Shown here: one piece after another, positions 1 through 64,000 of the stretch
Layout of the letters: every line of letters begins with the position of its first letter
How positions within the stretch are numbered: position 1 is the first letter of the stretch
Assembly: GCA_026545225.1 (NCBI GenBank)
Contig: CM048847.1
Location: 248,001-312,000, forward strand
Length of the DNA stretch: 64,000 nucleotides
From: Cornus controversa
Taxonomy: Eukaryota; Streptophyta; Magnoliopsida; Cornales; Cornaceae
Reading direction: 5' to 3'
Position numbers and translations under genes: made by a program
Notes under the pieces: model-generated
What the model saw: the letters and a program-made list of their open reading frames with translations, nothing else
Databases searched by the model: none
Told to the model about the DNA's origin: nothing

Positions 1-2191
1 TTCCAAGAGAAGTCGTGCCATAATACTAATCGTACGCTGCTTTTTTCAAAATGAAACCATCAAAGGGTCCCAATGAAACGACGAGCATGTCGATCCGATA
101 TTCATCCATGTTTGTTTGAGTTGTTCTGAGTCGAAAGAACAATTGCTTGCTATAATTAGGCATGACGACAACCGTATGGTGCTTTGTGCTAGAATTGACC
201 ATCTGGATGTCCAGAAGAATAGAGAATGACAACAACGGTTTTGAACTTGTTTCGTTTGACCTATCCTGATTCGAAAAGTCCAATCCACGTGAAATCGTGC
301 CATACATAGAATTATACGTTGCTTTATGCCTAATTCGACCGTGAGGACGTCCTGAATCGAAAAGAGTAATTTCTTGCTGCACCCATGAATGATCACAACC
401 GTATGGTGCTCTATGCCAACTTCAACCATCTGGACAAGTAAAAGAAACAATTCCCAAGCTATCGATGATTTGAAACAAGTTTAGTTTAAGTTGTTCTGAG
501 TCGAAAACCCCAGTCCTTGAGAAGTTGTGTCATAATCAGAATCGTAAGTTTCTTTTTTCCAAATTAGACCATCAAAGCATCCAAAAGAAGTGACGAACAT
601 GTCAATCCGATCTTCATCACAACCGTATGGTGCTTTGTTCCAAATTCGACCGTTTCGACATCTAAAGGAAACAATTTGTAAGCTACCAACCATTTTAAAC
701 TTGTTTCATTTGAGCTGTTATGATTAGAAAACCACATTCCAAGAGAAGTCGTGCCATAATACTAATCGTACGCTGTTTTTTTGTAAATGAAACCATCAAA
801 GCGTCCCAAAGAAACGACGAGCATGTCGATCCGATCTTCATCCATATTTGTTTGAGTTGTTATGAGTCGAAAAGAACAATTCCTTGCAATAACCAGGCAT
901 GACCACAACCGTGTGGTGCTTTGTCCTAGAATTGACCATCTGGATGTCTAGAAGAATAGAGAATGACAACAACGGTTTTGAACTTGTTTCGTTTGACCTG
1001 TCCTGATTCGAAAAGTCCAATCCACGTGAAATCGTGCCATACATAGAATTATACGTTGCATTATGCCTAATTCGACCGTGAGGACGTCCTGAATCGAAAA
1101 TAGTAATTCTTTGCTGCACTCATGAATGATCACAACCGTATGGTGCTCTATGCCAACTTCAACCATCTGGAAAAGTAAAAGAAACAATTCCCAAGCTATC
1201 GAGGATTTTAAATAAGTTTAGTTTGAGTTGTTCTGATTCCAAAACCCATTCCTTGAGAAGTCGTGCCATAATCAGAATCGTAAGTTTCTTTTTTCCAAAT
1301 TAGACCATCAAAGCATCCAAAAGAAGTGACGAACATGTCAATCCGATCTTCATCACAATCGTATGGTGCTTTGTTCCAAATTCGACCGTTTGGACATCTA
1401 AAGGAAACAATTTGGAAGCTACCAACCATTTTAAACTTGTTTCATTTGAGTTGTTTTGATTAGAAAACCACATTCCAAGAGAAGTCTTGCCATAATATTA
1501 ATCGTACGCTACTTTTTTCTAAATGAAACCATCAAAGGGTCCCAAAGAAACGACGAGGATGTCGATCCGATCTTCATCCATGTTTGTTTGAGTTGTTCTG
1601 AGTCAAAAAGAACAATTCCTTGCAATAACCAGGCATGACCACAACCGTATGGCGCTTTGTGCTAGAATTGACCATCTGGATGTCCAGAAAAATAGAGAAT
1701 GACAACAACGGTTTCGAACTTGTTTCGTTTGACTTGTCCTGATTCGAAAATTCCAATCCATGTGAAATCGTGCCATACTTAGAATTATACGTTGCTTTAT
1801 GCCAAATTCAACCGTCAGGACTTCCTGAATCAAAAAGAGTAATTCCATACTGCACCCGTGAATGATCACAACCGTATGGTGCTCTATGCCAACTTCAACC
1901 ATCTGGACAAGTAAAAGAAACAATTCCCAAGCTATCGATGATTTCAAACAAGTTTAGTTTGAGTTGTTCTGATTCAAAAACCCATTCCTTGAGAAGTCGT
2001 GCCATAATCAGAATCGTAAGTTTCTTTTTTCCAAATTAGACCATCAAAGCATCCAAAAGAAGTGACGAACATGTCAATCCGATCTTCATCACAACCGTAT
2101 GGTGCTTTGTTCCAAATTCGACCGTTTGGACATCTAAAGGAAACAATTAGCAAGCTACCAACCATTTTAAACTTGTTTCATTTGAGTTGTT
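1..2191. repeat. HOR 1 (partial T1, T2, T3)
   Basis: The window opens 17 bases into a T1. Private changes in this T1: 'cccaatgaaacg' near 70 instead of 'cccaaagaaacg', and 'cctatcctg' near 262 instead of 'cctgtcctg'. T2 starts at 720 and T3 at 1456. Confidence 0.93.
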
Positions 2192-2332
2192 TTGATTCAA
2201 AAACCGCATTCCAAGAGAAGTCGTGCCATAATACTAATCGTACGCTGCTTTTTTCAAAATGAAACCATCAAAGGGTCCCAAAGAAACGACGAGCATGTCG
2301 ATCCGATATTCATCCATGTTTGTTTGAGTTGT
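2192..2332. repeat. Intra-monomer block C (142 bp class)
   Basis: Block C runs from the monomer-start motif to the next 'tctgagtcgaaa' motif. It is an older homologue of the first half of block B: both share 'ttcc(t/a)agagaagt(c/t)gtg(c/t)cataat', then a T-rich stretch, 'accatcaaag', and 'catgtc(g/a)atccgat'. The C and B copies in one monomer differ far more than the same block between HORs, so this duplication predates the HOR. Confidence 0.75.
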
Positions 2333-2375
2333 TCTGAGTCGAAAGAACAATTGCTTGCTATAATTAGGCATGACG

Positions 2376-2391
2376 ACAACCGTATGGTGCT
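2376..2391. repeat. Conserved 16-bp box, copy in block D
   Basis: 'acaaccgtatggtgct' occurs in D, A and B of every monomer, with at most one or two changes: 'accgtgtgg' in T2 block D, 'atcgtatgg' in T2 block B, 'ggcgct' in T3 block D. It survives while flanks have diverged strongly between blocks. It could be a protein-binding site or simply the best-preserved remnant of the ancestral unit; no known motif is matched. Confidence 0.6.
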
Positions 2392-2409
2392 TTGTGCTAG
2401 AATTGACCA

Positions 2410-2423
2410 TCTGGATGTCCAGA
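2410..2423. other. 14-bp perfect dyad in block D
   Basis: 'tctgga-tg-tccaga' is a perfect 6+2+6 inverted repeat, present in block D of T1, T3 and T4. T2 has 'tctggatgtctaga', which breaks one pair. It is a candidate dimeric protein site, or chance; no function is shown by sequence. Confidence 0.55.
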
Positions 2424-2493
2424 AGAATAGAGAATGACAACAACGGTTTTGAACTTGTTTCGTTTGACCTGTCCTGATTCGAAAAGTCCAATC

Positions 2494-2499
2494 CACGTG
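2494..2499. other. CACGTG hexamer in block A of T1/T2
   Basis: 'cacgtg' is an E-box/G-box-type hexamer, present once per T1 or T2 monomer. T3 has 'catgtg', a CpG-type transition, and so do the T1 copies at 44879 and 47087. A hexamer of this kind is expected by chance; regulatory meaning is not supported. Confidence 0.4.
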
Positions 2500-2551
2500 A
2501 AATCGTGCCATACATAGAATTATACGTTGCTTTATGCCTAATTCGACCGTG

Positions 2552-2561
2552 AGGACGTCCT
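2552..2561. other. 10-bp palindrome in block A
   Basis: 'aggacgtcct' is a perfect palindrome in T1 and T2, with centre 140 bp from the centre of the block D dyad. T3 has a different but equally symmetric form at the same place (4023-4036). Confidence 0.55.
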
Positions 2562-2602
2562 GAATCGAAAAGAGTAATTTCTTGCTGCACCCATGAATGA
2601 TC

Positions 2603-2618
2603 ACAACCGTATGGTGCT
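2603..2618. repeat. Conserved 16-bp box, copy in block A
   Basis: This copy lies 227 bp downstream of the block D copy and is followed by 'ctatgccaacttcaaccatctgg'-like sequence, homologous to the 'ttgtgctagaattgaccatctgg' that follows the D copy. A single copy with 'accgtaggg' occurs at 45299 and again at 47507. Confidence 0.6.
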
Positions 2619-2702
2619 CTATGCCAACTTCAACCATCTGGACAAGTAAAAGAAACAATTCCCAAGCTATCGATGATTTGAAACAAGTTTAGTTTAAGTT
2701 GT

Positions 2703-2927
2703 TCTGAGTCGAAAACCCCAGTCCTTGAGAAGTTGTGTCATAATCAGAATCGTAAGTTTCTTTTTTCCAAATTAGACCATCAAAGCATCCAAAAGAAGTG
2801 ACGAACATGTCAATCCGATCTTCATCACAACCGTATGGTGCTTTGTTCCAAATTCGACCGTTTCGACATCTAAAGGAAACAATTTGTAAGCTACCAACCA
2901 TTTTAAACTTGTTTCATTTGAGCTGTT
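2703..2927. repeat. Intra-monomer block B (224 bp class)
   Basis: Block B is the most complete-looking ancestral subunit: opening motif, 'gagaagt(t/c)gtg', a T6 run, 'accatcaaagcatcc', 'atccgatcttcatc', the box (2827-2842), 'attcgaccgtttcgacatc', and the closing 'aaacttgtttcatttgag'. It is the most frequent crossover site in this window: the mosaics at 4400, 8080 and 33104 all switch type inside it. Confidence 0.72.
2827..2842. repeat. Conserved 16-bp box, copy in block B
   Basis: This copy lies 224 bp downstream of the block A copy and 286 bp upstream of the next block D copy. 'ttgttccaaattcgaccgtt' follows. T2 and T4 carry T at the fifth base of the box (for example 5039), which makes it a good marker for crossover mapping. 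Confidence 0.6.
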
Positions 2928-3663
2928 ATGATTAGAAAACCACATTCCAAGAGAAGTCGTGCCATAATACTAATCGTACGCTGTTTTTTTGTAAATGAAA
3001 CCATCAAAGCGTCCCAAAGAAACGACGAGCATGTCGATCCGATCTTCATCCATATTTGTTTGAGTTGTTATGAGTCGAAAAGAACAATTCCTTGCAATAA
3101 CCAGGCATGACCACAACCGTGTGGTGCTTTGTCCTAGAATTGACCATCTGGATGTCTAGAAGAATAGAGAATGACAACAACGGTTTTGAACTTGTTTCGT
3201 TTGACCTGTCCTGATTCGAAAAGTCCAATCCACGTGAAATCGTGCCATACATAGAATTATACGTTGCATTATGCCTAATTCGACCGTGAGGACGTCCTGA
3301 ATCGAAAATAGTAATTCTTTGCTGCACTCATGAATGATCACAACCGTATGGTGCTCTATGCCAACTTCAACCATCTGGAAAAGTAAAAGAAACAATTCCC
3401 AAGCTATCGAGGATTTTAAATAAGTTTAGTTTGAGTTGTTCTGATTCCAAAACCCATTCCTTGAGAAGTCGTGCCATAATCAGAATCGTAAGTTTCTTTT
3501 TTCCAAATTAGACCATCAAAGCATCCAAAAGAAGTGACGAACATGTCAATCCGATCTTCATCACAATCGTATGGTGCTTTGTTCCAAATTCGACCGTTTG
3601 GACATCTAAAGGAAACAATTTGGAAGCTACCAACCATTTTAAACTTGTTTCATTTGAGTTGTT
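2928..3663. repeat. Monomer type T2 (reference copy)
   Basis: T2 starts 'atgattagaaaacc'. Diagnostic sites: a T7 run in 'ctgtttttttg', 'gcgtccc' and 'catatttg' in block C; 'accgtgtgg', 'gtcctag' and 'gatgtctagaag' in block D; 'gcattatgcc', 'gaaaatag' and 'gaaaagtaaaag' in block A; 'gattccaaaaccc' and 'cacaatcgtatgg' in block B. It leads into T3 through 'tttgagttgttttg'. Later copies change 'ttctttgctg' to 'ttccttgctg' (from about 32755 on). Confidence 0.93.
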
Positions 3664-4399
3664 TTGATTAGAAAACCACATTCCAAGAGAAGTCTTGCCA
3701 TAATATTAATCGTACGCTACTTTTTTCTAAATGAAACCATCAAAGGGTCCCAAAGAAACGACGAGGATGTCGATCCGATCTTCATCCATGTTTGTTTGAG
3801 TTGTTCTGAGTCAAAAAGAACAATTCCTTGCAATAACCAGGCATGACCACAACCGTATGGCGCTTTGTGCTAGAATTGACCATCTGGATGTCCAGAAAAA
3901 TAGAGAATGACAACAACGGTTTCGAACTTGTTTCGTTTGACTTGTCCTGATTCGAAAATTCCAATCCATGTGAAATCGTGCCATACTTAGAATTATACGT
4001 TGCTTTATGCCAAATTCAACCGTCAGGACTTCCTGAATCAAAAAGAGTAATTCCATACTGCACCCGTGAATGATCACAACCGTATGGTGCTCTATGCCAA
4101 CTTCAACCATCTGGACAAGTAAAAGAAACAATTCCCAAGCTATCGATGATTTCAAACAAGTTTAGTTTGAGTTGTTCTGATTCAAAAACCCATTCCTTGA
4201 GAAGTCGTGCCATAATCAGAATCGTAAGTTTCTTTTTTCCAAATTAGACCATCAAAGCATCCAAAAGAAGTGACGAACATGTCAATCCGATCTTCATCAC
4301 AACCGTATGGTGCTTTGTTCCAAATTCGACCGTTTGGACATCTAAAGGAAACAATTAGCAAGCTACCAACCATTTTAAACTTGTTTCATTTGAGTTGTT
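3664..4399. repeat. Monomer type T3 (reference copy)
   Basis: T3 is the most divergent type. Diagnostic sites: 'gaagtcttgcc' and 'aatattaatcg' in block C; 'gtcaaaaagaac', 'ggcgctttg', 'ccagaaaaatag' and 'ggtttcgaac' in block D; 'gaaaattccaatccatgtg', 'acttagaat', 'gtcaggacttcc' and 'ccatactgcac' in block A; 'aattagcaagc' in block B. It leads into T1. Its block C has 'gaggatgtcg' in HORs left of ~24 kb and 'gagcatgtcg' in the HORs at 22800-33839 (changed base 24374). Confidence 0.93.
4023..4036. other. 14-bp dyad in block A of T3
   Basis: 'tcagga-ct-tcctga' is a perfect 6+2+6 inverted repeat. Relative to T1/T2 the inner pair is lost and an outer pair is gained, so symmetry is kept with altered bases. 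In later T3 copies 'gtccggacttcc' (for example near 36407, 39351, 44506) alters it again. Confidence 0.55.
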
Positions 4400-5871
4400 T
4401 TGATTCAAAAACCGCATTCCAAGAGAAGTCGTGCCATAATACTAATCGTACGCTGCTTTTTTCAAAATGAAACCATCAAAGGGTCCCAAAGAAACGACGA
4501 GCATGTCGATCCGATATTCATCCATGTTTGTTTGAGTTGTTCTGAGTCGAAAGAACAATTGCTTGCTATAATTAGGCATGACGACAACCGTATGGTGCTT
4601 TGTGCTAGAATTGACCATCTGGATGTCCAGAAGAATAGAGAATGACAACAACGGTTTTGAACTTGTTTCGTTTGACCTGTCCTGATTCGAAAAGTCCAAT
4701 CCACGTGAAATCGTGCCATACATAGAATTATACGTTGCTTTATGCCTAATTCGACCGTGAGGACGTCCTGAATCGAAAAGAGTAATTTCTTGCTGCACCC
4801 ATGAATGATCACAACCGTATGGTGCTCTATGCCAACTTCAACCATCTGGACAAGTAAAAGAAACAATTCCCAAGCTATCGATGATTTGAAACAAGTTTAG
4901 TTTAAGTTGTTCTGAGTCGAAAACCCCAGTCCTTGAGAAGTTGTGTCATAATCAGAATCGTAAGTTTCTTTTTTCCAAATTAGACCATCAAAGCATCCAA
5001 AAGAAGTGACGAACATGTCAATCCGATCTTCATCACAATCGTATGGTGCTTTGTTCCAAATTCGACCGTTTGGACATCTAAAGGAAACAATTTGGAAGCT
5101 ACCAACCATTTTAAACTTGTTTCATTTGAGTTGTTTTGATTAGAAAACCACATTCCAAGAGAAGTCTTGCCATAATATTAATCGTACGCTACTTTTTTCT
5201 AAATGAAACCATCAAAGGGTCCCAAAGAAACGACGAGGATGTCGATCCGATCTTCATCCATGTTTGTTTGAGTTGTTCTGAGTCAAAAAGAACAATTCCT
5301 TGCAATAACCAGGCATGACCACAACCGTATGGCGCTTTGTGCTAGAATTGACCATCTGGATGTCCAGAAAAATAGAGAATGACAACAACGGTTTCGAACT
5401 TGTTTCGTTTGACTTGTCCTGATTCGAAAATTCCAATCCATGTGAAATCGTGCCATACTTAGAATTATACGTTGCTTTATGCCAAATTCAACCGTCAGGA
5501 CTTCCTGAATCAAAAAGAGTAATTCCATACTGCACCCGTGAATGATCACAACCGTATGGTGCTCTATGCCAACTTCAACCATCTGGACAAGTAAAAGAAA
5601 CAATTCCCAAGCTATCGATGATTTCAAACAAGTTTAGTTTGAGTTGTTCTGATTCAAAAACCCATTCCTTGAGAAGTCGTGCCATAATCAGAATCGTAAG
5701 TTTCTTTTTTCCAAATTAGACCATCAAAGCATCCAAAAGAAGTGACGAACATGTCAATCCGATCTTCATCACAACCGTATGGTGCTTTGTTCCAAATTCG
5801 ACCGTTTGGACATCTAAAGGAAACAATTAGCAAGCTACCAACCATTTTAAACTTGTTTCATTTGAGTTGTT
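4400..5871. repeat. HOR 3, dimeric (T1/T2 hybrid, T3), 1,472 bp
   Basis: The first monomer is T1 through 'gttgtgtcat' (4946) and T2 from 'cacaatcg' (5039) onward, so the exchange point lies between these. T3 follows at 5136. One monomer length is missing relative to the trimer, as an unequal T1 x T2 crossover would leave. Confidence 0.92.
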
Positions 5872-8079
5872 TTGATTCAAAAACCGCATTCCAAGAGAAG
5901 TCGTGCCATAATACTAATCGTACGCTGCTTTTTTCAAAATGAAACCATCAAAGGGTCCCAAAGAAACGACGAGCATGTCGATCCGATATTCATCCATGTT
6001 TGTTTGAGTTGTTCTGAGTCGAAAGAACAATTGCTTGCTATAATTAGGCATGACGACAACCGTATGGTGCTTTGTGCTAGAATTGACCATCTGGATGTCC
6101 AGAAGAATAGAGAATGACAACAACGGTTTTGAACTTGTTTCGTTTGACCTGTCCTGATTCGAAAAGTCCAATCCACGTGAAATCGTGCCATACATAGAAT
6201 TATACGTTGCTTTATGCCTAATTCGACCGTGAGGACGTCCTGAATCGAAAAGAGTAATTTCTTGCTGCACCCATGAATGATCACAACCGTATGGTGCTCT
6301 ATGCCAACTTCAACCATCTGGACAAGTAAAAGAAACAATTCCCAAGCTATCGATGATTTGAAACAAGTTTAGTTTAAGTTGTTCTGAGTCGAAAACCCCA
6401 GTCCTTGAGAAGTTATGTCATAATCAGAATCGTAAGTTTCTTTTTTCCAAATTAGACCATCAAAGCATCCAAAAGAAGTGACGAACATGTCAATCCGATC
6501 TTCATCACAACCGTATGGTGCTTTGTTCCAAATTCGACCGTTTCGACATCTAAAGGAAACAATTTGTAAGCTACCAACCATTTTAAACTTGTTTCATTTG
6601 AGCTGTTATGATTAGAAAACCACATTCCAAGAGAAGTCGTGCCATAATACTAATCGTACGCTGTTTTTTTGTAAATGAAACCATCAAAGCGTCCCAAAGA
6701 AACGACGAGCATGTCGATCCGATCTTCATCCATATTTGTTTGAGTTGTTATGAGTCGAAAAGAACAATTCCTTGCAATAACCAGGCATGACCACAACCGT
6801 GTGGTGCTTTGTCCTAGAATTGACCATCTGGATGTCTAGAAGAATAGAGAATGACAACAACGGTTTTGAACTTGTTTCGTTTGACCTGTCCTGATTCGAA
6901 AAGTCCAATCCACGTGAAATCGTGCCATACATAGAATTATACGTTGCATTATGCCTAATTCGACCGTGAGGACGTCCTGAATCGAAAATAGTAATTCTTT
7001 GCTGCACTCATGAATGATCACAACCGTATGGTGCTCTATGCCAACTTCAACCATCTGGAAAAGTAAAAGAAACAATTCCCAAGCTATCGAGGATTTTAAA
7101 TAAGTTTAGTTTGAGTTGTTCTGATTCCAAAACCCATTCCTTGAGAAGTCGTGCCATAATCAGAATCGTAAGTTTCTTTTTTCCAAATTAGACCATCAAA
7201 GCATCCAAAAGAAGTGACGAACATGTCAATCCGATCTTCATCACAATCGTATGGTGCTTTGTTCCAAATTCGACCGTTTGGACATCTAAAGGAAACAATT
7301 TGGAAGCTACCAACCATTTTAAACTTGTTTCATTTGAGTTGTTTTGATTAGAAAACCACATTCCAAGAGAAGTCTTGCCATAATATTAATCGTACGCTAC
7401 TTTTTTCTAAATGAAACCATCAAAGGGTCCCAAAGAAACGACGAGGATGTCGATCCGATCTTCATCCATGTTTGTTTGAGTTGTTCTGAGTCAAAAAGAA
7501 CAATTCCTTGCAATAACCAGGCATGACCACAACCGTATGGCGCTTTGTGCTAGAATTGACCATCTGGATGTCCAGAAAAATAGAGAATGACAACAACGGT
7601 TTCGAACTTGTTTCGTTTGACTTGTCCTGATTCGAAAATTCCAATCCATGTGAAATCGTGCCATACTTAGAATTATACGTTGCTTTATGCCAAATTCAAC
7701 CGTCAGGACTTCCTGAATCAAAAAGAGTAATTCCATACTGCACCCGTGAATGATCACAACCGTATGGTGCTCTATGCCAACTTCAACCATCTGGACAAGT
7801 AAAAGAAACAATTCCCAAGCTATCGATGATTTCAAACAAGTTTAGTTTGAGTTGTTCTGATTCAAAAACCCATTCCTTGAGAAGTCGTGCCATAATCAGA
7901 ATCGTAAGTTTCTTTTTTCCAAATTAGACCATCAAAGCATCCAAAAGAAGTGACGAACATGTCAATCCGATCTTCATCACAACCGTATGGTGCTTTGTTC
8001 CAAATTCGACCGTTTGGACATCTAAAGGAAACAATTAGCAAGCTACCAACCATTTTAAACTTGTTTCATTTGAGTTGTT
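5872..8079. repeat. HOR 4, trimer T1-T2-T3
   Basis: Matches the prototype except for 'agttatgtcat' (A at 6415) in T1 block B, where other T1 copies have G. Confidence 0.93.
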
Positions 8080-9551
8080 TTGATTCAAAAACCGCATTCC
8101 AAGAGAAGTCGTGCCATAATACTAATCGTACGCTGCTTTTTTCAAAATGAAACCATCAAAGGGTCCCAAAGAAACGACGAGCATGTCGATCCGATATTCA
8201 TCCATGTTTGTTTGAGTTGTTCTGAGTCGAAAGAACAATTGCTTGCTATAATTAGGCATGACGACAACCGTATGGTGCTTTGTGCTAGAATTGACCATCT
8301 GGATGTCCAGAAGAATAGAGAATGACAACAACGGTTTTGAACTTGTTTCGTTTGACCTGTCCTGATTCGAAAAGTCCAATCCACGTGAAATCGTGCCATA
8401 CATAGAATTATACGTTGCTTTATGCCTAATTCGACCGTGAGGACGTCCTGAATCGAAAAGAGTAATTTCTTGCTGCACCCATGAATGATCACAACCGTAT
8501 GGTGCTCTATGCCAACTTCAACCATCTGGACAAGTAAAAGAAACAATTCCCAAGCTATCGATGATTTGAAACAAGTTTAGTTTAAGTTGTTCTGAGTCGA
8601 AAACCCCAGTCCTTGAGAAGTTGTGTCATAATCAGAATCGTAAGTTTCTTTTTTCCAAATTAGACCATCAAAGCATCCAAAAGAAGTGACGAACATGTCA
8701 ATCCGATCTTCATCACAATCGTATGGTGCTTTGTTCCAAATTCGACCGTTTGGACATCTAAAGGAAACAATTTGGAAGCTACCAACCATTTTAAACTTGT
8801 TTCATTTGAGTTGTTTTGATTAGAAAACCACATTCCAAGAGAAGTCTTGCCATAATATTAATCGTACGCTACTTTTTTCTAAATGAAACCATCAAAGGGT
8901 CCCAAAGAAACGACGAGGATGTCGATCCGATCTTCATCCATGTTTGTTTGAGTTGTTCTGAGTCAAAAAGAACAATTCCTTGCAATAACCAGGCATGACC
9001 ACAACCGTATGGCGCTTTGTGCTAGAATTGACCATCTGGATGTCCAGAAAAATAGAGAATGACAACAACGGTTTCGAACTTGTTTCGTTTGACTTGTCCT
9101 GATTCGAAAATTCCAATCCATGTGAAATCGTGCCATACTTAGAATTATACGTTGCTTTATGCCAAATTCAACCGTCAGGACTTCCTGAATCAAAAAGAGT
9201 AATTCCATACTGCACCCGTGAATGATCACAACCGTATGGTGCTCTATGCCAACTTCAACCATCTGGACAAGTAAAAGAAACAATTCCCAAGCTATCGATG
9301 ATTTCAAACAAGTTTAGTTTGAGTTGTTCTGATTCAAAAACCCATTCCTTGAGAAGTCGTGCCATAATCAGAATCGTAAGTTTCTTTTTTCCAAATTAGA
9401 CCATCAAAGCATCCAAAAGAAGTGACGAACATGTCAATCCGATCTTCATCACAACCGTATGGTGCTTTGTTCCAAATTCGACCGTTTGGACATCTAAAGG
9501 AAACAATTAGCAAGCTACCAACCATTTTAAACTTGTTTCATTTGAGTTGTT
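8080..9551. repeat. HOR 5, dimeric (T1/T2 hybrid, T3), 1,472 bp
   Basis: Carries the same T1/T2 junction as the unit at 4400, displaced by 3,680 bp (exchange between about 8627 and 8718). An identical hybrid argues for copying, not a second independent crossover. Confidence 0.92.
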
Positions 9552-11759
9552 TTGATTCAAAAACCGCATTCCAAGAGAAGTCGTGCCATAATACTAATCG
9601 TACGCTGCTTTTTTCAAAATGAAACCATCAAAGGGTCCCAAAGAAACGACGAGCATGTCGATCCGATATTCATCCATGTTTGTTTGAGTTGTTCTGAGTC
9701 GAAAGAACAATTGCTTGCTATAATTAGGCATGACGACAACCGTATGGTGCTTTGTGCTAGAATTGACCATCTGGATGTCCAGAAGAATAGAGAATGACAA
9801 CAACGGTTTTGAACTTGTTTCGTTTGACCTGTCCTGATTCGAAAAGTCCAATCCACGTGAAATCGTGCCATACATAGAATTATACGTTGCTTTATGCCTA
9901 ATTCGACCGTGAGGACGTCCTGAATCGAAAAGAGTAATTTCTTGCTGCACCCATGAATGATCACAACCGTATGGTGCTCTATGCCAACTTCAACCATCTG
10001 GACAAGTAAAAGAAACAATTCCCAAGCTATCGATGATTTGAAACAAGTTTAGTTTAAGTTGTTCTGAGTCGAAAACCCCAGTCCTTGAGAAGTTGTGTCA
10101 TAATCAGAATCGTAAGTTTCTTTTTTCCAAATTAGACCATCAAAGCATCCAAAAGAAGTGACGAACATGTCAATCCGATCTTCATCACAACCGTATGGTG
10201 CTTTGTTCCAAATTCGACCGTTTCGACATCTAAAGGAAACAATTTGTAAGCTACCAACCATTTTAAACTTGTTTCATTTGAGCTGTTATGATTAGAAAAC
10301 CACATTCCAAGAGAAGTCGTGCCATAATACTAATCGTACGCTGTTTTTTTGTAAATGAAACCATCAAAGCGTCCCAAAGAAACGACGAGCATGTCGATCC
10401 GATCTTCATCCATATTTGTTTGAGTTGTTATGAGTCGAAAAGAACAATTCCTTGCAATAACCAGGCATGACCACAACCGTGTGGTGCTTTGTCCTAGAAT
10501 TGACCATCTGGATGTCTAGAAGAATAGAGAATGACAACAACGGTTTTGAACTTGTTTCGTTTGACCTGTCCTGATTCGAAAAGTCCAATCCACGTGAAAT
10601 CGTGCCATACATAGAATTATACGTTGCATTATGCCTAATTCGACCGTGAGGACGTCCTGAATCGAAAATAGTAATTCTTTGCTGCACTCATGAATGATCA
10701 CAACCGTATGGTGCTCTATGCCAACTTCAACCATCTGGAAAAGTAAAAGAAACAATTCCCAAGCTATCGAGGATTTTAAATAAGTTTAGTTTGAGTTGTT
10801 CTGATTCCAAAACCCATTCCTTGAGAAGTCGTGCCATAATCAGAATCGTAAGTTTCTTTTTTCCAAATTAGACCATCAAAGCATCCAAAAGAAGTGACGA
10901 ACATGTCAATCCGATCTTCATCACAATCGTATGGTGCTTTGTTCCAAATTCGACCGTTTGGACATCTAAAGGAAACAATTTGGAAGCTACCAACCATTTT
11001 AAACTTGTTTCATTTGAGTTGTTTTGATTAGAAAACCACATTCCAAGAGAAGTCTTGCCATAATATTAATCGTACGCTACTTTTTTCTAAATGAAACCAT
11101 CAAAGGGTCCCAAAGAAACGACGAGGATGTCGATCCGATCTTCATCCATGTTTGTTTGAGTTGTTCTGAGTCAAAAAGAACAATTCCTTACAATAACCAG
11201 GCATGACCACAACCGTATGGCGCTTTGTGCTAGAATTGACCATCTGGATGTCCAGAAAAATAGAGAATGACAACAACGGTTTCGAACTTGTTTCGTTTGA
11301 CTTGTCCTGATTCGAAAATTCCAATCCATGTGAAATCGTGCCATACTTAGAATTATACGTTGCTTTATGCCAAATTCAACCGTCAGGACTTCCTGAATCA
11401 AAAAGAGTAATTCCATACTGCACCCGTGAATGATCACAACCGTATGGTGCTCTATGCCAACTTCAACCATCTGGACAAGTAAAAGAAACAATTCCCAAGC
11501 TATCGATGATTTCAAACAAGTTTAGTTTGAGTTGTTCTGATTCAAAAACCCATTCCTTGAGAAGTCGTGCCATAATCAGAATCGTAAGTTTCTTTTTTCC
11601 AAATTAGACCATCAAAGCATCCAAAAGAAGTGACGAACATGTCAATCCGATCTTCATCACAACCGTATGGTGCTTTGTTCCAAATTCGACCGTTTGGACA
11701 TCTAAAGGAAACAATTAGCAAGCTACCAACCATTTTAAACTTGTTTCATTTGAGTTGTT
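9552..11759. repeat. HOR 6, trimer
   Basis: T1-T2-T3. The T3 at 11024 has 'ccttacaataacc' near 11190 instead of 'ccttgcaataacc'. Confidence 0.93.
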
Positions 11760-54446: not shown

Positions 54447-57390
54447 TTGATTCAAAAACCGCATTCCAAGAGAAGTCGTGCCATAATACTAATCGTACGC
54501 TACTTTTTTCAAAATGAAACCATCAAAGGGTCCCAAAGAAACGACGAGCATGTCGATCCGATATTCATCCATGTTTGTTTGAGTTGTTCTGAGTCGAAAG
54601 AACAATTGCTTGCTATAATCAGGCATGACGACAACCGTATGGTGCTTTGTGCTAGAATTGACCATCTGGATGTCCAGAAGAATAGAGAATGACAACAACG
54701 GTTTTGAACTTGTTTCGTTTGACCTGTCCTGATTCGAAAAGTCCAATCCACGTGAAATCGTGCCATACATAGAATTATACGTTGCTTTATGCCTAATTCG
54801 ACCGTGAGGACGTCCTGAATCGAAAAGAGTAATTCCTTGCGGCACTCATGAATGATCACAACCGTATGGTGCTCTATGCCAACTTCAACCATCTGGACAA
54901 GTAAAAGAAACAATTCCCAAGCTATCGAGGATTTTAAACAAGTTTAGTTTGAGTTGTTCTGATTCAAAACCCCATTCCTTGAGAAGTCGTGCCATAATCA
55001 GAATCGTAAGTTTCTTTTTTCCAAATTAGACCATCAAAGCATCCAAAAGAAGTGACGAACATGTCAATCCGATCTTCATCACAATCGTATGGTGCTTTGT
55101 TCCAAATTCGACAGTTTGGACATCTAAAGGAAACAATTTGGAAGCTACCAACCATTTTAAACTTGTTTCATTTGAGTTGTTTTGATTAGAAAACCACATT
55201 CCAAGAGAAGTCTTGCCATAATATTAATCGTACGCTACTTTTTTCTAAATGAAACCATCAAAGGGTCCCAGAGAAACGACGAGGATGTCGATCCGATCTT
55301 CATCCATGTTTGTTTGAGTTGTTCTGATTCAAAAAGAACAATTCCTTGCAATAACCAGGCATGACCACAACCGTATGGCGCTTTGTGCTAGAATTGACCA
55401 TCTGGATGTCCAGAAAAATAGAGAATGACAACAACGGTTTCGATCTTGTTTCGTTTGACTTGTCCTGATTCGAAAATTCCAATCCATGTGAGATCATGCC
55501 ATACTTAGAATTATACGTTGCTTTATGCCAAATTCAACCGTCCGGACTTCCTGAATCAAAAAGAGTAATTCCATACTGCACCCATGAATGATCACAACCG
55601 TATGGTGCTCTATGCCAACTTCAACCATCTGGACAAGTAAAAGAAACAATTCCCAAGCTACCGATGATTTCAAACAAGTTTAGTTTGAGTTGTTCTGATT
55701 CAAAAACCCATTCCTTGAGAAGTCGTGCCATAATCAGAATCGTAAGTTTCTTTTTTCCAAATTAGACCATCAAAGCATCCAAAAGAAGTGACGAACATGT
55801 CAATCCGATCTTCATCACAACCGTATGGTGCTTTGTTCCAAATTCGACCGTTTGGACATCTAAAGGAAACAATTAGCAAGCTACCAACCATTTTAAACTT
55901 GTTTCATTTGAGTTGCTTTGTTTCAAAAACCGCATTCCAAGAGAAGTCGTGCCATAATACTAATCGTACGCTGCTTTTTTCAAAATGAAACCATCAAAGG
56001 GTCCCAAAGAAACGACGAGCATGTCGATCCGATATTCATCCATGTTTGTTTGAGTTGTTCTGAGTCGAAAGAACAATTGCTTGCTATAATCAGGCATGAC
56101 GACAACCGTATGGTGCTTTGTGCTAGAATTGACCATCTGGATGTCCAGAAGAATAGAGAATGACAACAACGGTTTTGAACTTGTTTCGTTTGACCTGTCC
56201 TGATTCGAAAAGTCCAATCCACGTGAAATCGTGCCATACATAGAATTATACGTTGCTTTATGCCTAATTCGACCGTGAGGACGTCCTGAATCGAAAAGAG
56301 TAATTTCTTGCTGCACCCATGAATGATCACAACCGTATGGTGCTCTATGCCAACTTCAACCATCTGGACAAGTAAAAGAAACAATTCCCAAGCTATCGAT
56401 GATTTGAAACAAGTTTAGTTTAAGTTGTTCTGAGTCGAAAACCCCAGTCCTTGAGAAGTTGTGTCATAATCAGAATCGTAAGTTTCTTTTTTCCAAATTA
56501 GACCATCAAAGCATCCAAAAGAAGTGACGAACATGTCAATCTGATCTTCATCACAACCGTATGGTGCTTTGTTCCAAATTCGACCGTTTGGACATCTAAA
56601 GGAAACAATTTGTAAGCTACCAACCATTTTAAACTAGTTTCATTTGAGCTGTTATGATTAGAAAACCACATTCCAAGAGAAGTCGTGCCATAATACTAAT
56701 CGTACGCTGTTTTTTTGTAAATGAAACCATCAAAGCGTCCCAAAGAAACGACGAGCATGTCGATCCGATCTTCATCCATATTTGTTAGAGTTGTTATGAG
56801 TCGAAAAGAACAATTCCTTGCAATAACCAGGCACGACCACAACCGTGTGGTGCTTTGTCCTAGAATTGACCATCTGGATGTCTAGAAGAATAGAGAATGA
56901 CAACAACGGTTTTGAACTTGTTTCGTTTGACCTGTCCTGATTCGAAAAGTCCAATCCACGTGAAATCGTGCCATACATAGAATTATACGTTGCTTTATGC
57001 CTAATTCGACCGTGAGGACGTCCTGAATCGAAAAGAGTAATTTCTTGCTGCACCCATGAATGATCACAACCGTATGGTGCTCTATGCCAACTTCAACCAT
57101 CTGGACAAGTAAAAGAAACAATTCCCAAGCTATCGATGATTTGAAACAAGTTTAGTTTAAGTTGTTCTGAGTCGAAAACCCCAGTCCTTGAGAAGTTGTG
57201 TCATAATCAGAATCGTAAGTTTCTTTTTTCCAAATTAGACCATCAAAGCATCCAAAAGAAGTGACGAACATGTCAATCCGATCTTCATCACAACCGTATG
57301 GTGCTTTGTTCCAAATTCGACCGTTTCGACATCTAAAGGAAACAATTTGTAAGCTACCAACCATTTTAAACTTGTTTCATTTGAGCTGTT
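52975..57390. repeat. 4,416-bp segmental duplication, copy 2
   Basis: Same monomer order and private changes (for example 54124, 56636). The right limit lies before about 57,326, where block B has 'gtttcgac' while copy 1 has 'gtttggac' near 52,910. Confidence 0.88.
54447..55917. repeat. HOR 25, dimer (T1/T4 hybrid, T3), 1,471 bp
   Basis: Copy of HOR 23 displaced by 4,416 bp, with all its private changes, including 'tttcgatcttg' near 55439 and 'gagatcatgcc' near 55491. Confidence 0.9.
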
Positions 57391-58126
57391 ATGATTAGAA
57401 AACCACATTCCAAGAGAAGTCGTGCCATAATACTAATCGTACGCTGTTTTTTTGTAAATGAAACAATCAAAGCGTCCCAAAGAAACGACGAGCATGTCGA
57501 TCCGATCTTCATCCATATTTGTTAGAGTTGTTATGAGTCGAAAAGAACAATTCCTTGCAATAACCAGGCACGACCACAACCGTGTGGTGCTTTGTCCTAG
57601 AATTGACCATCTGGATGTCTAGAAGAATAGAGAATGACAACAACGGTTTTGAACTTGTTTCGTTTGACCTGTCCTGATTCGAAAAGTCCAATCCACGTGA
57701 AATCGTGCCATACATAGAATTATACGTTGCATTATGCCTAATTCGACCGTGAGGACGTCCTGAATCGAAAATAGTAATTCCTTGCTGCACTCATGAATGA
57801 TCACAACCGTATGGTGCTCTATGCCAACTTCAACCATCTGGAAAAGTAAAAGAAACAATTCCCAAGCTATCGAGGATTTTAAATAAGTTTAGTTTGAGTT
57901 GTTCTGATTCAAAAACCCATTCCTTGAGAAGTCGTGCCATAATCAGAATCGTAAGTTTCTTTTTTCCAAATTAGACCATCAAAGCATCCAAAAGAAGTGA
58001 CGAACATGTCAATCCGATCTTCATCACAACCGTATGGTGCTTTATTCCAAATTCGACCGTTTGGACATCTAAAGGAAACAATTAGCAAGCTACCAACCAT
58101 TTTAAACTTGTTTCATTTGAGTTGCT
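55918..58126. repeat. HOR 26, trimer (T1, T2/T1, T2/T3), 2,209 bp
   Basis: T1 is at 55918. The T2/T1 hybrid at 56654 is 737 bp. The hybrid at 57391 is T2 in C, D and A, then T3-like in B ('gattcaaaaaccc', 'aattagcaagc'), and has private 'gaaacaatcaaag' near 57464 and 'ctttattcc' (A at 58044). No true T3 is present. Confidence 0.89.
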
Positions 58127-59599
58127 TTGATTCAAAAACCGCATTCCAAGAGAAGTCGTGCCATAATACTAATCGTACGCTGCTTTTTTCAAAATGAAAC
58201 CATCAAAGGGTCCCAAAGAAACGACGAGCATGTCGATCCGATATTCATCCATGTTCGTTTGAGTTGTTCTGAGTCGAAAGAACAATTGCTTGCTATAATC
58301 AGGCATGACGACAACCGTATGGTGCTTTGTGCTAGAATTGACCATCTGGATGTCCAGAAGAATAGAGAATGACAACAACGGTTTTGAACTTGTTTCGTTT
58401 GACCTGTCCTGATTCGAAAAGTCCAATCCACGTGAAATCGTGCCATACATAGAATTATACGTTGCTTTATGCCTAATTCGACCGTGAGGACGTCCTGAAT
58501 CGAAAAGAGTAATTTCTTGCTGCACCCATGAATGATCACAACCGTATGGTGCTCTATGCCAACTTCAACCATCTGGACAAGTAAAAGAAACAATTCCCAA
58601 GCTATCGATGATTTCAAACAAGTTTAGTTTAAGTTGTTCTGAGTCGAAAACCCCAGTCCTTGAGAAGTTGTGTCATAATTAGAATCGTAAGTTTCTTTTT
58701 TCCAAATTAGACCATCAAAGCATCCAAAAGAAGTGACGAACATGTCAATCCGATCTTCATCACAACCGTATGGTGCTTTGTTCCAAATTCGACCGTTTCG
58801 ACATCTAAAGGAAACAATTTGTAAGCTACCAACCATTTTAAACTTGTTTCATTTGAGCTGTTATGATTAGAAAACCACATTCCAAGAGAAGTCGTGCCAT
58901 AATACTAATCGTACGCTGTTTTTTTGTAAATGAAACCATCAAAGCGTCCCAAAGAAACGACGAGCATGTCGATCCGATCTTCATCCATATTTGTTAGAGT
59001 TGTTATGAGTCGAAAAGAACAATTCCTTGCAATAACCAGGCACGACCACAACCGTGTGGTGCTTTGTCCTAGAATTGACCATCTAGATGTCTAGAAGAAT
59101 AGAGAATGACAACAACGGTTTTGAACTTGTTTCGTTTGACCTGTCCTGATTCGAAAAGTCCAATCCACGTGAAATCGTGCCATACATAGAATTATACGTT
59201 GCTTTATGCCTAATTCGACCGTGAGGACGTCCTGAATCGAAAAGAGTAATTTCTTGCTGCACCCATGAATGATCACAACCGTATGGTGCTCTATGCCAAC
59301 TTCAACCATCTGGACAAGTAAAAGAAACAATTCCCAAGCTATCGATGATTTGAAACAAGTTTAGTTTAAGTTGTTCTGAGTCGAAAACCCCAGTCCTTGA
59401 GAAGTTGTGTCATAATCAGAATCGTAAGTTTCTTTTTTCCAAATTAGACCATCAAAGCATCCAAAAGAAGTGACGAACATGTCAATCCGATCTTCATCAC
59501 AACCGTATGGTGCTTTGTTCCAAATTCGACCGTTTCGACATCTAAAGGAAACAATTTGTAAGCTACCAACCATTTTAAACTTGTTTCATTTGAGCTGTT
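57391..59599. repeat. 2,209-bp segmental duplication, copy 1
   Basis: Order (T2/T3)-T1-(T2/T1). Markers at 58044 and 58256 recur 2,209 bp later. The odd length comes from a 737-bp hybrid monomer. Confidence 0.82.
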
Positions 59600-60335
59600 A
59601 TGATTAGAAAACCACATTCCAAGAGAAGTCGTGCCATAATACTAATCGTACGCTGTTTTTTTGTAAATGAAACCATCAAAGCGTCCCAAAGAAACGACGA
59701 GCATGTCGATCCGATCTTCATCCATATTTGTTAGAGTTGTTATGAGTCGAAAAGAACAATTCCTTGCAATAACCAGGCACGACCACAACCGTGTGGTGCT
59801 TTGTCCTAGAATTGACCATCTGGATGTCTAGAAGAATAGAGAATGACAACAACGGTTTTGAACTTGTTTCGTTTGACCTGTCCTGATTCGAAAAGTCCAA
59901 TCCACGTGAAATCGTGCCATACATAGAATTATACGTTGCATTATGCCTAATTCGACCGTGAGGACGTCCTGAATCGAAAATAGTAATTCCTTGCTGCACT
60001 CATGAATGATCACAACCGTATGGTGCTCTATGCCAACTTCAACCATCTGGAAAAGTAAAAGAAACAATTCCCAAGCTATCGAGGATTTTAAATAAGTTTA
60101 GTTTGAGTTGTTCTGATTCAAAAACCCATTCCTTGAGAAGTCGTGCCATAATCAGAATCGTAAGTTTCTTTTTTCCAAATTAGACCATCAAAGCATCCAA
60201 AAGAAGTGACGAACATGTCAATCCGATCTTCATCACAACCGTATGGTGCTTTATTCCAAATTCGACCGTTTGGACATCTAAAGGAAACAATTAGCAAGCT
60301 ACCAACCATTTTAAACTTGTTTCATTTGAGTTGCT
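58127..60335. repeat. HOR 27, trimer (T1, T2/T1, T2/T3), 2,209 bp
   Basis: T1 (58127) has 'atgttcgtttg' (C at 58256) and 'gatgatttcaaac' near 58612, a T3-like patch. The T2/T1 hybrid (58863) has 'catctagatg' near 59083. The T2/T3 hybrid at 59600 repeats 'ctttattcc' (A at 60253). Confidence 0.89.
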
Positions 60336-61807
60336 TTGATTCAAAAACCGCATTCCAAGAGAAGTCGTGCCATAATACTAATCGTACGCTGCTTTTTTCA
60401 AAATGAAACCATCAAAGGGTCCCAAAGAAACGACGAGCATGTCGATCCGATATTCATCCATGTTCGTTTGAGTTGTTCTGAGTCGAAAGAACAATTGCTT
60501 GCTATAATCAGGCATGACGACAACCGTATGGTGCTTTGTGCTAGAATTGACCATCTGGATGTCCAGAAGAATAGAGAATGACAACAACGGTTTTGAACTT
60601 GTTTCGTTTGACCTGTCCTGATTCGAAAAGTCCAATCCACGTGAAATCGTGCCATACATAGAATTATACGTTGCTTTATGCCTAATTCGACCGTGAGGAC
60701 GTCCTGAATCGAAAAGAGTAATTTCTTGCTGCACCCATGAATGATCACAACCGTATGGTGCTCTATGCCAACTTCAACCATCTGGACAAGTAAAAGAAAC
60801 AATTCCCAAGCTATCGATGATTTGAAACAAGTTTAGTTTAAGTTGTTCTGAGTCGAAAACCCCAGTCCTTGAGAAGTTGTGTCATAATCAGAATCGTAAG
60901 TTTCTTTTTTCCAAATTAGACCATCAAAGCATCCAAAAGAAGTGACGAACATGTCAATCCGATCTTCATCACAACCGTATGGTGCTTTGTTCCAAATTCG
61001 ACCGTTTCGACATCTAAAGGAAACAATTTGTAAGCTACCAACCATTTTAAACTTGTTTCATTTGAGCTGTTATGATTAGAAAACCACATTCCAAGAGAAG
61101 TCGTGCCATAATACTAATCGTACGCTGTTTTTTTGTAAATGAAACCATCAAAGCGTCCCAAAGAAACGACGAGCATGTCGATCCGATCTTCATCCATATT
61201 TGTTTGAGTTGTTATGAGTCGAAAAGAACAATTCCTTGCAATAACCAGGCATGACCACAACCGTGTGGTGCTTTGTCCTAGAATTGACCATCTGGATGTC
61301 TAGAAGAATAGAGAATGACAACAACGGTTTTGAACTTGTTTCGTTTGACCTGTCCTGATTCGAAAAGTCCAATCCACGTGAAATCGTGCCATACATAGAA
61401 TTATACGTTGCATTATGCCTAATTCGACCGTGAGGACGTCCTGAATCGAAAATAGTAATTCCTTGCTGCACTCATGAATGATCACAACCGTATGGTGCTC
61501 TATGCCAACTTCAACCATCTGGACAAGTAAAAGAAACAATTCCCAAGCTATCGAGGATTTTAAACAAGTTTAGTTTGAGTTGTTCTGATTCAAAACCCCA
61601 TTCCTTGAGAAGTCGTGCCATAATCAGAATCGTAAGTTTCTTTTTTCCAAATTAGACCATCAAAGCATCCAAAAGAAGTGACGAACATGTCAATCCGATC
61701 TTCATCACAATCGTATGGTGCTTTGTTCCAAATTCGACCGTTTGGACATCTAAAGGAAACAATTTGGAAGCTACCAACCATTTTAAACTTGTTTCATTTG
61801 AGTTGTT
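59600..61807. repeat. 2,209-bp segmental duplication, copy 2 (last monomer diverges)
   Basis: Markers at 60253 and 60465 match copy 1. The third monomer (61072) is T2/T4, not T2/T1, so the shared segment ends inside it. Confidence 0.75.
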
Positions 61808-62543
61808 TTGATTAGAAAACCACATTCTAAGAGAAGTCTTGCCATAATATTAATCGTACGCTACTTTTTTCTAAATGAAACCATCAAAGGGTCCCAAAGA
61901 AACGACGAGGATGTCGATCCGATCTTCATCCATGTTTGTTTGAGTTGTTCTGAGTCAAAAAGAACAATTCCTTGCAATAACCAGGCATGACCACAACCGT
62001 ATGGCGCTTTGTGCTAGAATTGACCATCTGGATGTCCAGAAAAATAGAGAATGACAACAACGGTTTCGAACTTGTTTCGTTTGACTTGTCCTGATTCGAA
62101 AATTCCAATCCATGTGAAATCGTGCCATACTTAGAATTATACGTTGCTTTATGCCAAATTCAACCGTCAGGACTTCCTGAATCAAAAAGAGTAATTTCAT
62201 ACTGCACCCATGAATGATCACAACCGTATGGTGCTCTATGCCAACTTCAACCATCTGGACAAGTAAAAGAAACAATTCCCAAGCTATCGATGATTTCAAA
62301 CAAGTTTAGTTTGAGTTGTTCTGATTCAAAAACCCATTCCTTGAGAAGTCGTGCCATAATCAGAATCGTAAGTTTCTTTTTTCCAAATTAGACCATCAAA
62401 GCATCCAAAAGAAGTGACGAACATGTCAATCCGATCTTCATCACAACCGTATGGTGCTTTGTTCCAAATTCGACCGTTTGGACATCTAAAGGAAACAATT
62501 AGCAAGCTACCAACCATTTTAAACTTGTTTCATTTGAGTTGTT
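60336..62543. repeat. HOR 28, trimer (T1, T2/T4, T3)
   Basis: T1 repeats 'atgttcgtttg' (C at 60465). The monomer at 61072 is T2 through block A and T4-like after 'gacaagtaaaag' ('gattcaaaaccccattcc'). T3 (61808) has 'cattctaagag' (T at 61828) and 'gtaatttcatac' near 62192. Confidence 0.9.
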
Positions 62544-64000
62544 TTGATTCAAAAACCGCATTCCAAGAGAAGTCGTGCCATAATACTAATCGTACGCTGC
62601 TTTTTTCAAAATGAAACCAACAAAGGGTCCCAAAGAAACGACGAGCATGTCGATCCGATATTCATCCATGTTTGTTTGAGTTGTTCTGAGTCGAAAGAAC
62701 AATTGCTTTCTATAATCAGGCATGACGACAACCGTATGGTGCTTTGTGCTAGAATTGACCATCTGGATGTCCAGAAGAATAGAGAATGACAACAACGGTT
62801 TTGAACTTGTTTCGTTTGACCTGTCCTGATTCGAAAAGTCCAATCCACGTGAAATCGTGCCATACATAGAATTATACGTTGCTTTATGCCTAATTCGACC
62901 GTGAGGACGTCCTGAATCGAAAAGAGTAATTTCTTGCTGCACCCATGAATGATCACAACCGTATGGTGCTCTATGCCAACTTCAACCATCTGGACAAGTA
63001 AAAGAAACAATTCCCAAGCTATCGATGATTTGAAACAAGTTTAGTTTAAGTTGTTCTGAGTCAAAAACCCCAGTCCTTGAGAAGTTGTGTCATAATCAGA
63101 ATCGTAAGTTTCTTCTTTCCAAATTAGACCATCAAAGCATCCAAAAGAAGTGACGAACATGTCAATCCGATCTTCATCACAACCGTATGGTGCTTTGTTC
63201 CAAATTCGACCGTTTCGACATCTAAAGGAAACAATTTGTAAGCTACCAACCATTTTAAACTTGTTTCATTTGAGCTGTTATGATTAGAAAACCACATTCC
63301 AAGAGAAGTCGTGCCATAATACTAATCGTACGCTATTTTTTTGTAAATGAAACCATCAAAGCGTCCCAAAGAAACGACGAGCATGTCGATCCGATCTTCA
63401 TCCATATTTGTTTGAGTTGTTATGAGTCGAAAAGAACAATTCCTTGCAATAACCAGGCATGACCACAACCGTGTGGTGCTTTGTCCTAGAATTGACCATC
63501 TGGATGTCTAGAAGAATAGAGAATGACAACAACGGTTTTGAACTTGTTTCGTTTGACCTGTCCTGATTCGAAAAGTCCAATCCACGTGAAATCGTGCCAT
63601 ACATAGAATTATACGTTGCATTATGCCTAATTCGACCGTGAGGACGTCCTGAATCGAAAATAGTAATTCCTTGCTGCACTCATGAATGATCACAACCGTA
63701 TGGTGCTCTATGCCAACTTCAACCATCTGGAAAAGTAAAAGAAACAATTCCCAAGCTATCGAGGATTTTAAATAAGTTTAGTTTGAGTTATTCTGATTCA
63801 AAAACCCATTCCTTGAGAAGTCGTGCCATAATCAGAATCGTAAGTTTCTTTTTTCCAAATTAGACCATCAAAGCATCCAAAAGAAGTGACGAACATGTCA
63901 ATCCGATCTTCATCACAATCGTATGGTGCTTTGTTCCAAATTCGACCGTTTGGACATCTAAAGGAAACAATTTGTAAGCTACCAACCATTTTAAACTTGT
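62544..64000. repeat. HOR 29, partial (T1, T2; runs off the window)
   Basis: T1 has 'gaaaccaacaaag' near 62618, 'ttgctttctataatc' near 62705 and 'tttcttctttcc' (C at 63115). T2 (63280) has 'cgctatttttttg' and 'gagttattctg', and is cut about 15 bases before its end. Confidence 0.9.

What the first reader, a model, noticed from the sequence alone, without database searches (positions are those of the whole stretch)
1..64000. Pure 736-bp satellite with a trimeric 2,208-bp higher-order repeat
87 monomers with no interruption, in three main types that alternate T1-T2-T3. Between-HOR identity is visibly much higher than between-type identity, the hallmark of HOR homogenisation known from alpha satellite. 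I recognise no published family with this monomer.
Basis: partly seen in the sequence, partly recalled or inferred. Interest (0 to 1): 0.7.

Follow-up and report, generated by a model that had tools for sequence, protein, structure and literature searches.

The report
Nested plant satellite repeat array
The whole window is one block of repeated DNA from a plant chromosome, built by several rounds of repeat duplication and unequal crossing over, much as human centromere DNA is, and probably part of that plant's centromere regions, though this is not proven.

Summary
The satellite is real: the 64-kb window is one uninterrupted 736-bp array with three main types and a 2,208-bp period (lag-3 identity 97.7%; 0 of 5,000 permutations reach it). 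Three corrections. (1) The trimer is regular only to about 33 kb; beyond that 2-, 4-, 6- and 7-unit blocks occur, and nine monomers are crossover chimeras. (2) 736 bp is not the base unit: it is a decayed trimer of a ~285-bp unit (223+286+227; two carry ~60-bp deletions), itself an old dimer of ~143 bp. Full-length ~282-287-bp arrays exist elsewhere in the same genome. (3) The window lies at 248-312 kb of a 77-Mb contig in a 772-Mb genome. The array starts at base 1 and the family recurs to 5 Mb. Relatives start contigs C2 and C4-C8, end C2, and lie patchily inside C1 (39-42 Mb). A TTTAGGG telomere and excess C>T at CG and CHG sites indicate a plant with methylated repeats. Changing HOR types, orientation switches and an older flank resemble alpha-satellite organisation. 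Centromere is my leading reading (about 0.55) over subtelomeric heterochromatin; there are no CENH3 data. Species and family could not be named. A new member of a known kind.

The parts
1..64000 (+). Uninterrupted array of a 736-bp satellite (86 complete + 2 partial monomers); equals G000:C3:248001-312000
251..33371 (+). Regular part: trimeric HOR A-B-C (2,208 bp), monomers m01-m45, with two ABCBC blocks; lag-3 identity 99.05%
33372..63547 (+). Irregular part: monomers m46-m86, blocks ABBC, ABBCBC, ABBBCBC, A-AD, ABC
394..617 (+). Example subunit S1 (about 223 bp; a ~285-bp unit lacking about 60 bp at its 3' end)
618..903 (+). Example subunit S2 (286 bp; the full-length unit, two ~143-bp halves)
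904..1130 (+). Example subunit S3 (about 227 bp; a ~285-bp unit with an internal deletion)
4947..5039 (+). Crossover interval A->B in chimeric monomer m07 (0 mismatches to the two parents)
8627..8719 (+). Same A->B junction in chimeric monomer m12 (0 mismatches)
33255..33298 (+). Switch B->A in m45
33745..33798 (+). Switch B->C in m46 (type D)
41351..41394 (+). Switch B->A in m56 (same junction as m45)
45679..45697 (+). Switch A->B in m62
52879..52911 (+). Crossover interval A->B in m72 (0 mismatches)
57885..57911 (+). Switch B->C in m79 (type D)
60094..60120 (+). Switch B->C in m82 (type D; same junction as m79)

Best explanation
The window is part of a multi-megabase, non-coding plant satellite domain built in nested steps. 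A ~143-bp repeat was doubled to a ~285-bp unit. Three ~285-bp units, two with ~60-bp deletions, became a 736-bp composite, now seen on at least three chromosomes (C3, C4, C8). On C3, adjacent diverged 736-bp copies were then co-amplified into 2-mer (1,472 bp), 3-mer (2,208 bp) and longer HORs. Out-of-register (unequal) crossing over, with conversion, removed and added monomers and keeps copies alike. Methylation at CG and CHG slowly adds C>T changes. Shown here: the hierarchy, the HOR, the chimeras, the CG/CHG excess of C>T, and the location at one end of a 77-Mb contig with relatives on other contigs. Inferred: the order of the steps, the methylation, and that the domain is centromeric or pericentromeric heterochromatin of mostly acrocentric chromosomes, serving as substrate for CENH3 and silent chromatin through its repetitive form rather than any encoded product.
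For: Hierarchy: S1/S2/S3 are 72-81% identical pairwise. The S2 halves align with local score 52 against a maximum of 34 in 500 shuffles; 7 of 8 half-by-half comparisons exceed all their shuffles. The C2 start has a 287-bp period and C7 282/565. Mostly full-length ~280-bp units occur at C2, C5, C6, C7 and C3 5 Mb, while the ~212/225/281 pattern repeats on C3, C4 and C8. HOR. Unequal crossover: nine chimeric monomers with six distinct junctions, three monomers with zero mismatches to their two parents; 15 of 18 flanks keep canonical order. HOR form changes along C3: dimers at 1-130 kb, trimers and mixtures to about 0.5 Mb, mainly another type from 0.75 Mb. Orientation is reversed at 2.2-4.5 Mb and arrays of 70% identity lie at 5 Mb. 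C1 interior: all 100 listed of 2,909 27-mer matches lie at 41.43-41.81 Mb; samples at 39.0, 41.6 and 42.0 Mb are positive. The ten big contigs sum to 756.6 Mb (lengths), so only about 15 Mb is left in the other 51, little room for missing short arms. Methylation footprint: C>T at CHG 13/95, CG 12/170, CHH 11/594, with no such bias in transversions; repeated in other loci.
Against: No CENH3 data. C2 carries the family at both ends. C7 has it at the start and two exact 47-mer matches near 19.1 and 19.2 Mb, though samples at 18.5, 19.15 and 20.0 Mb are negative. On C1 the samples at 41.0 and 41.3 Mb are negative, so that domain is patchy. Nothing was found on C9 or C10 in 13 samples each. C8 is negative at 1 Mb. 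Two retroelement pieces in the C3 domain were scanned by Pfam only, which does not tell whether they are of the centromeric CRM type. No CENP-B box. Short arms could be missing from the assembly altogether.
Confidence: 0.57

Rival explanations
1. Subtelomeric or interstitial heterochromatin satellite, in the manner of CS-1/HSR1 of Cannabaceae or RAE730 of Rumex acetosa: the same amplification and homogenisation, but no kinetochore role.
For: Arrays lie at the very start of contigs C2-C8 and also at the end of C2. CS-1 and HSR1 show that plant satellites (370-383 bp) can be subtelomeric in one species and pericentromeric in another (PMC12406709, passages).
Against: C1 carries the family in its interior. 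Of the ten contig ends sampled, the one with telomere repeats (C6) is opposite that contig's array, and C1 end, C9 start and C10 end carry a TG-rich minisatellite without this family.
Confidence: 0.33
2. Functionally neutral, knob-like satellite blocks spread by drive or drift, with no fixed chromosomal position.
For: Uneven placement: both ends of C2, C7 start plus two matches near 19 Mb, none found on C9/C10.
Against: All seven sampled starts of C2-C8 carry the family, with contig-specific arrays where a second sample was positive (C4, C5, C6, C7), and C1 carries it inside.
Confidence: 0.08
3. Assembly artefact: a short array inflated or mis-joined.
For: Contig C3 begins inside the array, so the assembly breaks there. 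Exact repeats up to 4,243 bp occur.
Against: 51 of 86 monomers are distinct. Rare variants favour CG/CHG context. HOR types change over the first 0.75 Mb.
Confidence: 0.02

Closest known systems
Primate alpha satellite HOR arrays
   Same: Diverged monomers co-amplified into HORs, near-identical HOR copies, chromosome-specific arrays, layers of older divergent repeats beside a homogeneous core (PMC9549924, passages)
   Different: Base unit ~285 bp (2 x ~143) rather than ~171 bp; an extra nested level with deletions (736 bp); no CENP-B box; plant-type mutation footprint; CENP-A/CENH3 not shown; only one flank seen on C3
Cannabaceae satellites CS-1, HSR1, HJSR
   Same: Plant satellites in long arrays whose position switches between subtelomere and pericentromere (PMC12406709, passages)
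Rumex acetosa RAE730
   Same: Similar unit length (about 730 bp; recalled) in plant heterochromatin
   Different: [quoted passage not shown] sequence not available for comparison

Membership tests
Higher-order-repeat satellite DNA (kind) | Tandem diverged monomers repeated as a multi-monomer unit with higher identity between units than between adjacent monomers | tested here: met
   lag-3 97.67% against lag-1 94.69%; 0 of 5,000 permutations
Higher-order-repeat satellite DNA (kind) | Unequal-crossover products (chimeric monomers) | tested here: met
   nine chimeras, six distinct junctions; 15 of 18 flanks canonical
Alpha satellite | ~171-bp monomer, primate, CENP-B box in a subset (recalled) | tested here: not met
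   base unit ~285/143 bp; best CENP-B box match 11 of 17, shuffles' best averages 11.8 (first 2,944 bp); TTTAGGG telomere
Centromeric satellite (by function) | CENH3 occupancy | not testable with these tools
   no ChIP data held
Centromeric satellite (by function) | One interior or acrocentric block on every chromosome | tested here: inconclusive
   C1 interior and C2-C8 starts positive; C2 end and C7 near 19 Mb also positive; C9 and C10 none in 13 samples each
Rumex acetosa RAE730 | Confined to one autosomal segment | tested here: not met
   related arrays on eight large contigs; holds only if the superfamily is taken as the family
Rumex acetosa RAE730 | Sequence identity | not testable with these tools
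   no sequence seen in the passages read or the listing
Cannabaceae CS-1/HSR1 | 370-383-bp monomer | tested here: not met
   no base period of that length; ~285-bp unit; sequence identity itself untested

The most novel reading that the evidence does not exclude
One plant satellite superfamily repeats much of the alpha-satellite programme: nested units (143, 285, 736, 1,472/2,208 bp), chromosome-specific HORs, orientation switches and an age gradient away from the youngest HOR block, at CENH3 centromeres of mostly acrocentric chromosomes, with CG/CHG C>T decay as a built-in clock against homogenisation.
Probability: 0.35. Interest if true: 0.6.

Novelty: new member of a known kind. Interest (0 to 1): 0.45.

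Why it matters
It gives a readable fossil record of satellite growth in a plant: the ~285-bp, 736-bp, dimer and trimer levels survive side by side in one genome, crossover junctions can be placed to within tens of bases, and a methylation-like footprint is visible without any methylation data. If CENH3 maps to the young HOR block, the layered-expansion model of primate centromeres could be tested in plants.

Tried and rejected
Coding origin: no Pfam match in the two longest minus-strand ORFs (131 and 144 aa) of the first 8 kb, and both are cut short in other monomer types. RNA gene: no Rfam hit up to E=1 in 1-2944. Plasmid or phage relation: no blastn match of 1-2208. 17-mer CACAACCGTATGGTGCT in viral and genome contigs: 1 and 10 loci, one match each; blastn of the first 2,208 bp against these 11 loci gave nothing longer than 23 bp in the 15 best rows shown, taken as chance. 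Long palindrome: reverse-complement score 38, within ten shuffles of 34-54. CENP-B box: none. RIP-type (CpA) mutation: CAG 8/35 against CAA 5/141, CAT 1/106, CAC 0/44, so the third base matters. Half-by-half comparison of S1 (32 against a shuffle maximum of 37) does not support the ~143-bp dimer in S1 itself. Published family: searches showed no satellite of this unit in their listings (one search listed 20 of 253 papers, 10 of 11). For 8 papers, 2 and 6, I read the passages with 736, all incidental; the other papers listed were not opened for this. Species: not identified. The ~81% mean identities mix cross-subunit alignments and were not used.
Full report
Observation. The window has no N, GC 0.38-0.40 and no interruption. 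Autocorrelation is highest at 2,208 (0.803) and 4,416 bp (0.783), with 736 bp at 0.709. Cutting at an anchor gives 86 complete monomers, 51 of them distinct. Average-linkage clustering at 3% gives A (26), B (32), C (25) and a small D group (3). Identity within A, B and C is 98.6-99.4%, between them 93.5-95.1%. Identity between monomers three apart is 97.67% against 94.69% for neighbours; none of 5,000 random orders reaches the lag-3 or lag-6 value. So the HOR is real. It is regular in m01-m45 (lag-3 99.05%) and irregular afterwards (96.1%); 13 of 26 A-initiated blocks are plain ABC.

Mechanism seen in the sequence. Painting monomers by diagnostic columns shows mosaics. A one-breakpoint fit improves nine monomers by at least 6 mismatches: m07, m12 and m72 become exact joins of two types, the other six leave 4-6 mismatches. 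Three pairs (m07/m12, m45/m56, m79/m82) share a junction, so there are six distinct junctions, some later copied. Fifteen of 18 flanks follow the order expected from the parent types; the exceptions are one side of m62 and both sides of m72. That is what out-of-register crossing over leaves behind. Exact repeats reach 4,243 bp; the 15 longest of 27 (at least 1,500 bp) all have spacings that are multiples of 736, which suggests recent amplification.

The real base unit. The 736-bp consensus contains three paralogous subunits, S1 223, S2 286 and S3 227 bp, 81, 72 and 74% identical (S1/S2, S1/S3, S2/S3). The two halves of S2 are themselves related (local score 52; 500 shuffles reach at most 34); of eight half-by-half comparisons seven exceed all their shuffles and S1 with itself does not. 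In the same genome the start of C2 has a 287-bp period with a weaker 143, C7 has 282 and 565, C6 285 and 864, C2 end 283, C3 at 5 Mb 282 and 565. A profile search shows mostly full-length units there, but a repeating pattern of about 212, 225 and 281 bp on C3, C4 (with one extra full unit) and C8. S2 of the window is 90.9% identical to S2 of C8 and 83.0% to the S2 class of C4, and S3 91.5% and 88.1%, against 67-80% to other subunits (the S1 class there contains some partial S3 pieces and the C4 S2 class the extra unit). Most simply, the 736-bp composite formed once and then spread to these chromosomes.

Surroundings. The window is G000:C3:248001-312000 of a 771.7-Mb assembly in 61 contigs. Ten contigs of 48-129 Mb (lengths) sum to 756.6 Mb. 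C3 begins inside the array, and all 18 samples of 10 kb in the first 1.01 Mb carry it, two of them interrupted. Samples at 1.2, 1.5 and 1.8 Mb are positive in plus orientation; 2.2, 2.5, 3.0 and 4.5 Mb in minus; 5.0 Mb in plus at about 70% identity; 2.0, 3.5, 4.0 Mb and 15 places from 6 Mb to the contig end are negative. Related arrays start C4-C8 and end C2, at 69-91% identity in the best alignments to the 736-bp consensus, and start C2, whose ~285-bp consensus aligns at 79-83% in its three best-scoring alignments. A second sample at 0.5 Mb (C7) or 1 Mb (C4, C5, C6) is still satellite, with its own contig's start as best match; C8 is negative at 1 Mb. Single 300-bp samples at 3 Mb of C2 and C4-C8, at C2 50 and 103 Mb, C4 38 Mb, C8 30 Mb and C1 64 Mb were negative. 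C9 and C10 were negative in 13 samples each. A 27-mer close to the ancestral unit has 2,909 exact matches (1,955 + 954; reversed control 0). Only 100 are listed, all on the forward strand, so the listing may favour one strand and the first contig; all 100 lie on C1 at 41.43-41.81 Mb, with spacings such as 725+1,165 bp. Of 12 spot samples on C1, 39.0 (minus), 41.6 and 42.0 Mb (plus) are positive, 41.0, 41.3 and six from 42.5 to 52 Mb negative, and one was unreadable. Two exact 47-mer matches lie on C7 near 19.1 and 19.2 Mb; samples there at 18.5, 19.15 and 20.0 Mb are negative. The detection profile was trained on these families, so its 20-of-20 sensitivity on 200-bp slices of each is not independent.

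HOR form changes along C3. Clustering 301 full monomers from the window and 19 other samples (a twentieth, at 3 Mb, gave none): from 1 to 130 kb mostly dimers of the window's type B with a type absent from the window; from 150 to about 500 kb trimers and mixtures of the window's three types; further types by 540-700 kb; from 750 kb mainly one other type without clear HOR. Mean best-match identity between monomers is 98.6-99.1% at all distances up to 600 kb, 95.8% at 0.6-1.1 Mb and 94.8% beyond, so the homogenised domain is about half a megabase wide. This looks like a one-sided version of the layers described for human centromeres (PMC9549924, passages).

Taxon and chromatin. Of ten contig ends sampled, C6 ends in (TTTAGGG)n, the common plant telomere repeat (recalled). 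Within types, C>T changes fall on 13 of 95 CHG, 12 of 170 CG and 11 of 594 CHH sites; Fisher p = 2e-6 and 1e-3 against CHH (the nine chimeras left out). Transversions at C/G (CHG 0, CG 3, CHH 16) and T>C changes show no such bias. Counting each column once and dropping changes that match another type leaves CHG 10, CG 8, CHH 9 (p = 3e-5 and 0.03). Using rare alleles only, the window gives 12/94, 11/168, 11/589; other loci below 700 kb give CHG 13/224, CG 28/403, CHH 24/1,369 (p = 9e-4 and 7e-7); loci from 700 kb give CHG 5/90, CG 5/180, CHH 4/574 (clusters under five members dropped). Polarity is assumed from the consensus and events may be shared by descent, so p-values are nominal. Between-type differences show only a weak trend (CHG 4/32, CG 6/58, CHH 12/202). 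CG plus CHG methylation of repeats is typical of plants (recalled). CpG is not depleted overall (observed/expected 1.02), as expected if homogenisation outruns decay.

Interpretation. I favour a centromeric or pericentromeric satellite (about 0.55), because C1 carries it in the interior, C3-C8 carry it at one sampled end only, the telomere found is at the end opposite the array, and only about 15 Mb of sequence is left for short arms. Against it: both ends of C2, the extra C7 matches, patchiness on C1, nothing found on C9 and C10, the possibility that short arms are missing from the assembly, and no CENH3 data. A subtelomeric or heterochromatic role remains possible (about 0.33). Plant centromeres usually hold tandem repeats in HORs together with LTR, mostly Ty3, elements (PMC12371157, passages).

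Novelty. No satellite of this unit appeared in the listings of the paper searches. Open-access papers only were searched, the species is unknown, and no satellite database was available, so the family may already be described. The kind of thing, a plant HOR satellite, is known.

After re-reading the calls I corrected the sum of contig lengths, the description of the type changes along C3, the reading of the capped and one-stranded listing, and the number of independent junctions, and added negative samples and controls.

Noticed in passing
L031:712-4930 (G000:C3 about 600,712-604,930): A ~4.2-kb insertion in the array beginning TGTAAG and ending GTGACA, flanked by TTTCG on both sides: looks like a solo long LTR or non-autonomous LTR element with a 5-bp target duplication.
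   Followed up: partly
L026:7744-10000 and L041 (G000:C3 207,744 on; 2.0 Mb): Retroelement pieces next to or inside the satellite domain (SH3_Tf2-1 and Retrotrans_gag/Ty3_capsid Pfam hits).
   Followed up: partly
L081 (C5 end) and L059 (C20 start): 5S rRNA genes (Rfam RF00001; four in tandem in L059, one cut off at the C5 end), suggesting that contigs break in tandem arrays.
   Followed up: yes
L046 (C1 end), L054 (C9 start), L086 (C10 end): TG-rich degenerate minisatellite around TTTTGGGGTGATTTTGG at contig ends, possibly telomere-associated.
   Followed up: no
L037 (C3 1.0 Mb), L042 (C3 3.0 Mb): Local sub-periods 444/1,180 bp and 473/1,209 bp: perhaps 736-bp units that lost or gained a subunit.
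   Followed up: no
consensus columns 280-371 counted from 0 (window m01: about 531-622): Longest stretch without any between-type difference (about 92 bp); could be conversion, constraint or chance.
   Followed up: no
736-bp consensus: CAG is rare (3 against 9.2 expected) but CTG is not (9 against 7.9): a strand-asymmetric depletion.
   Followed up: no
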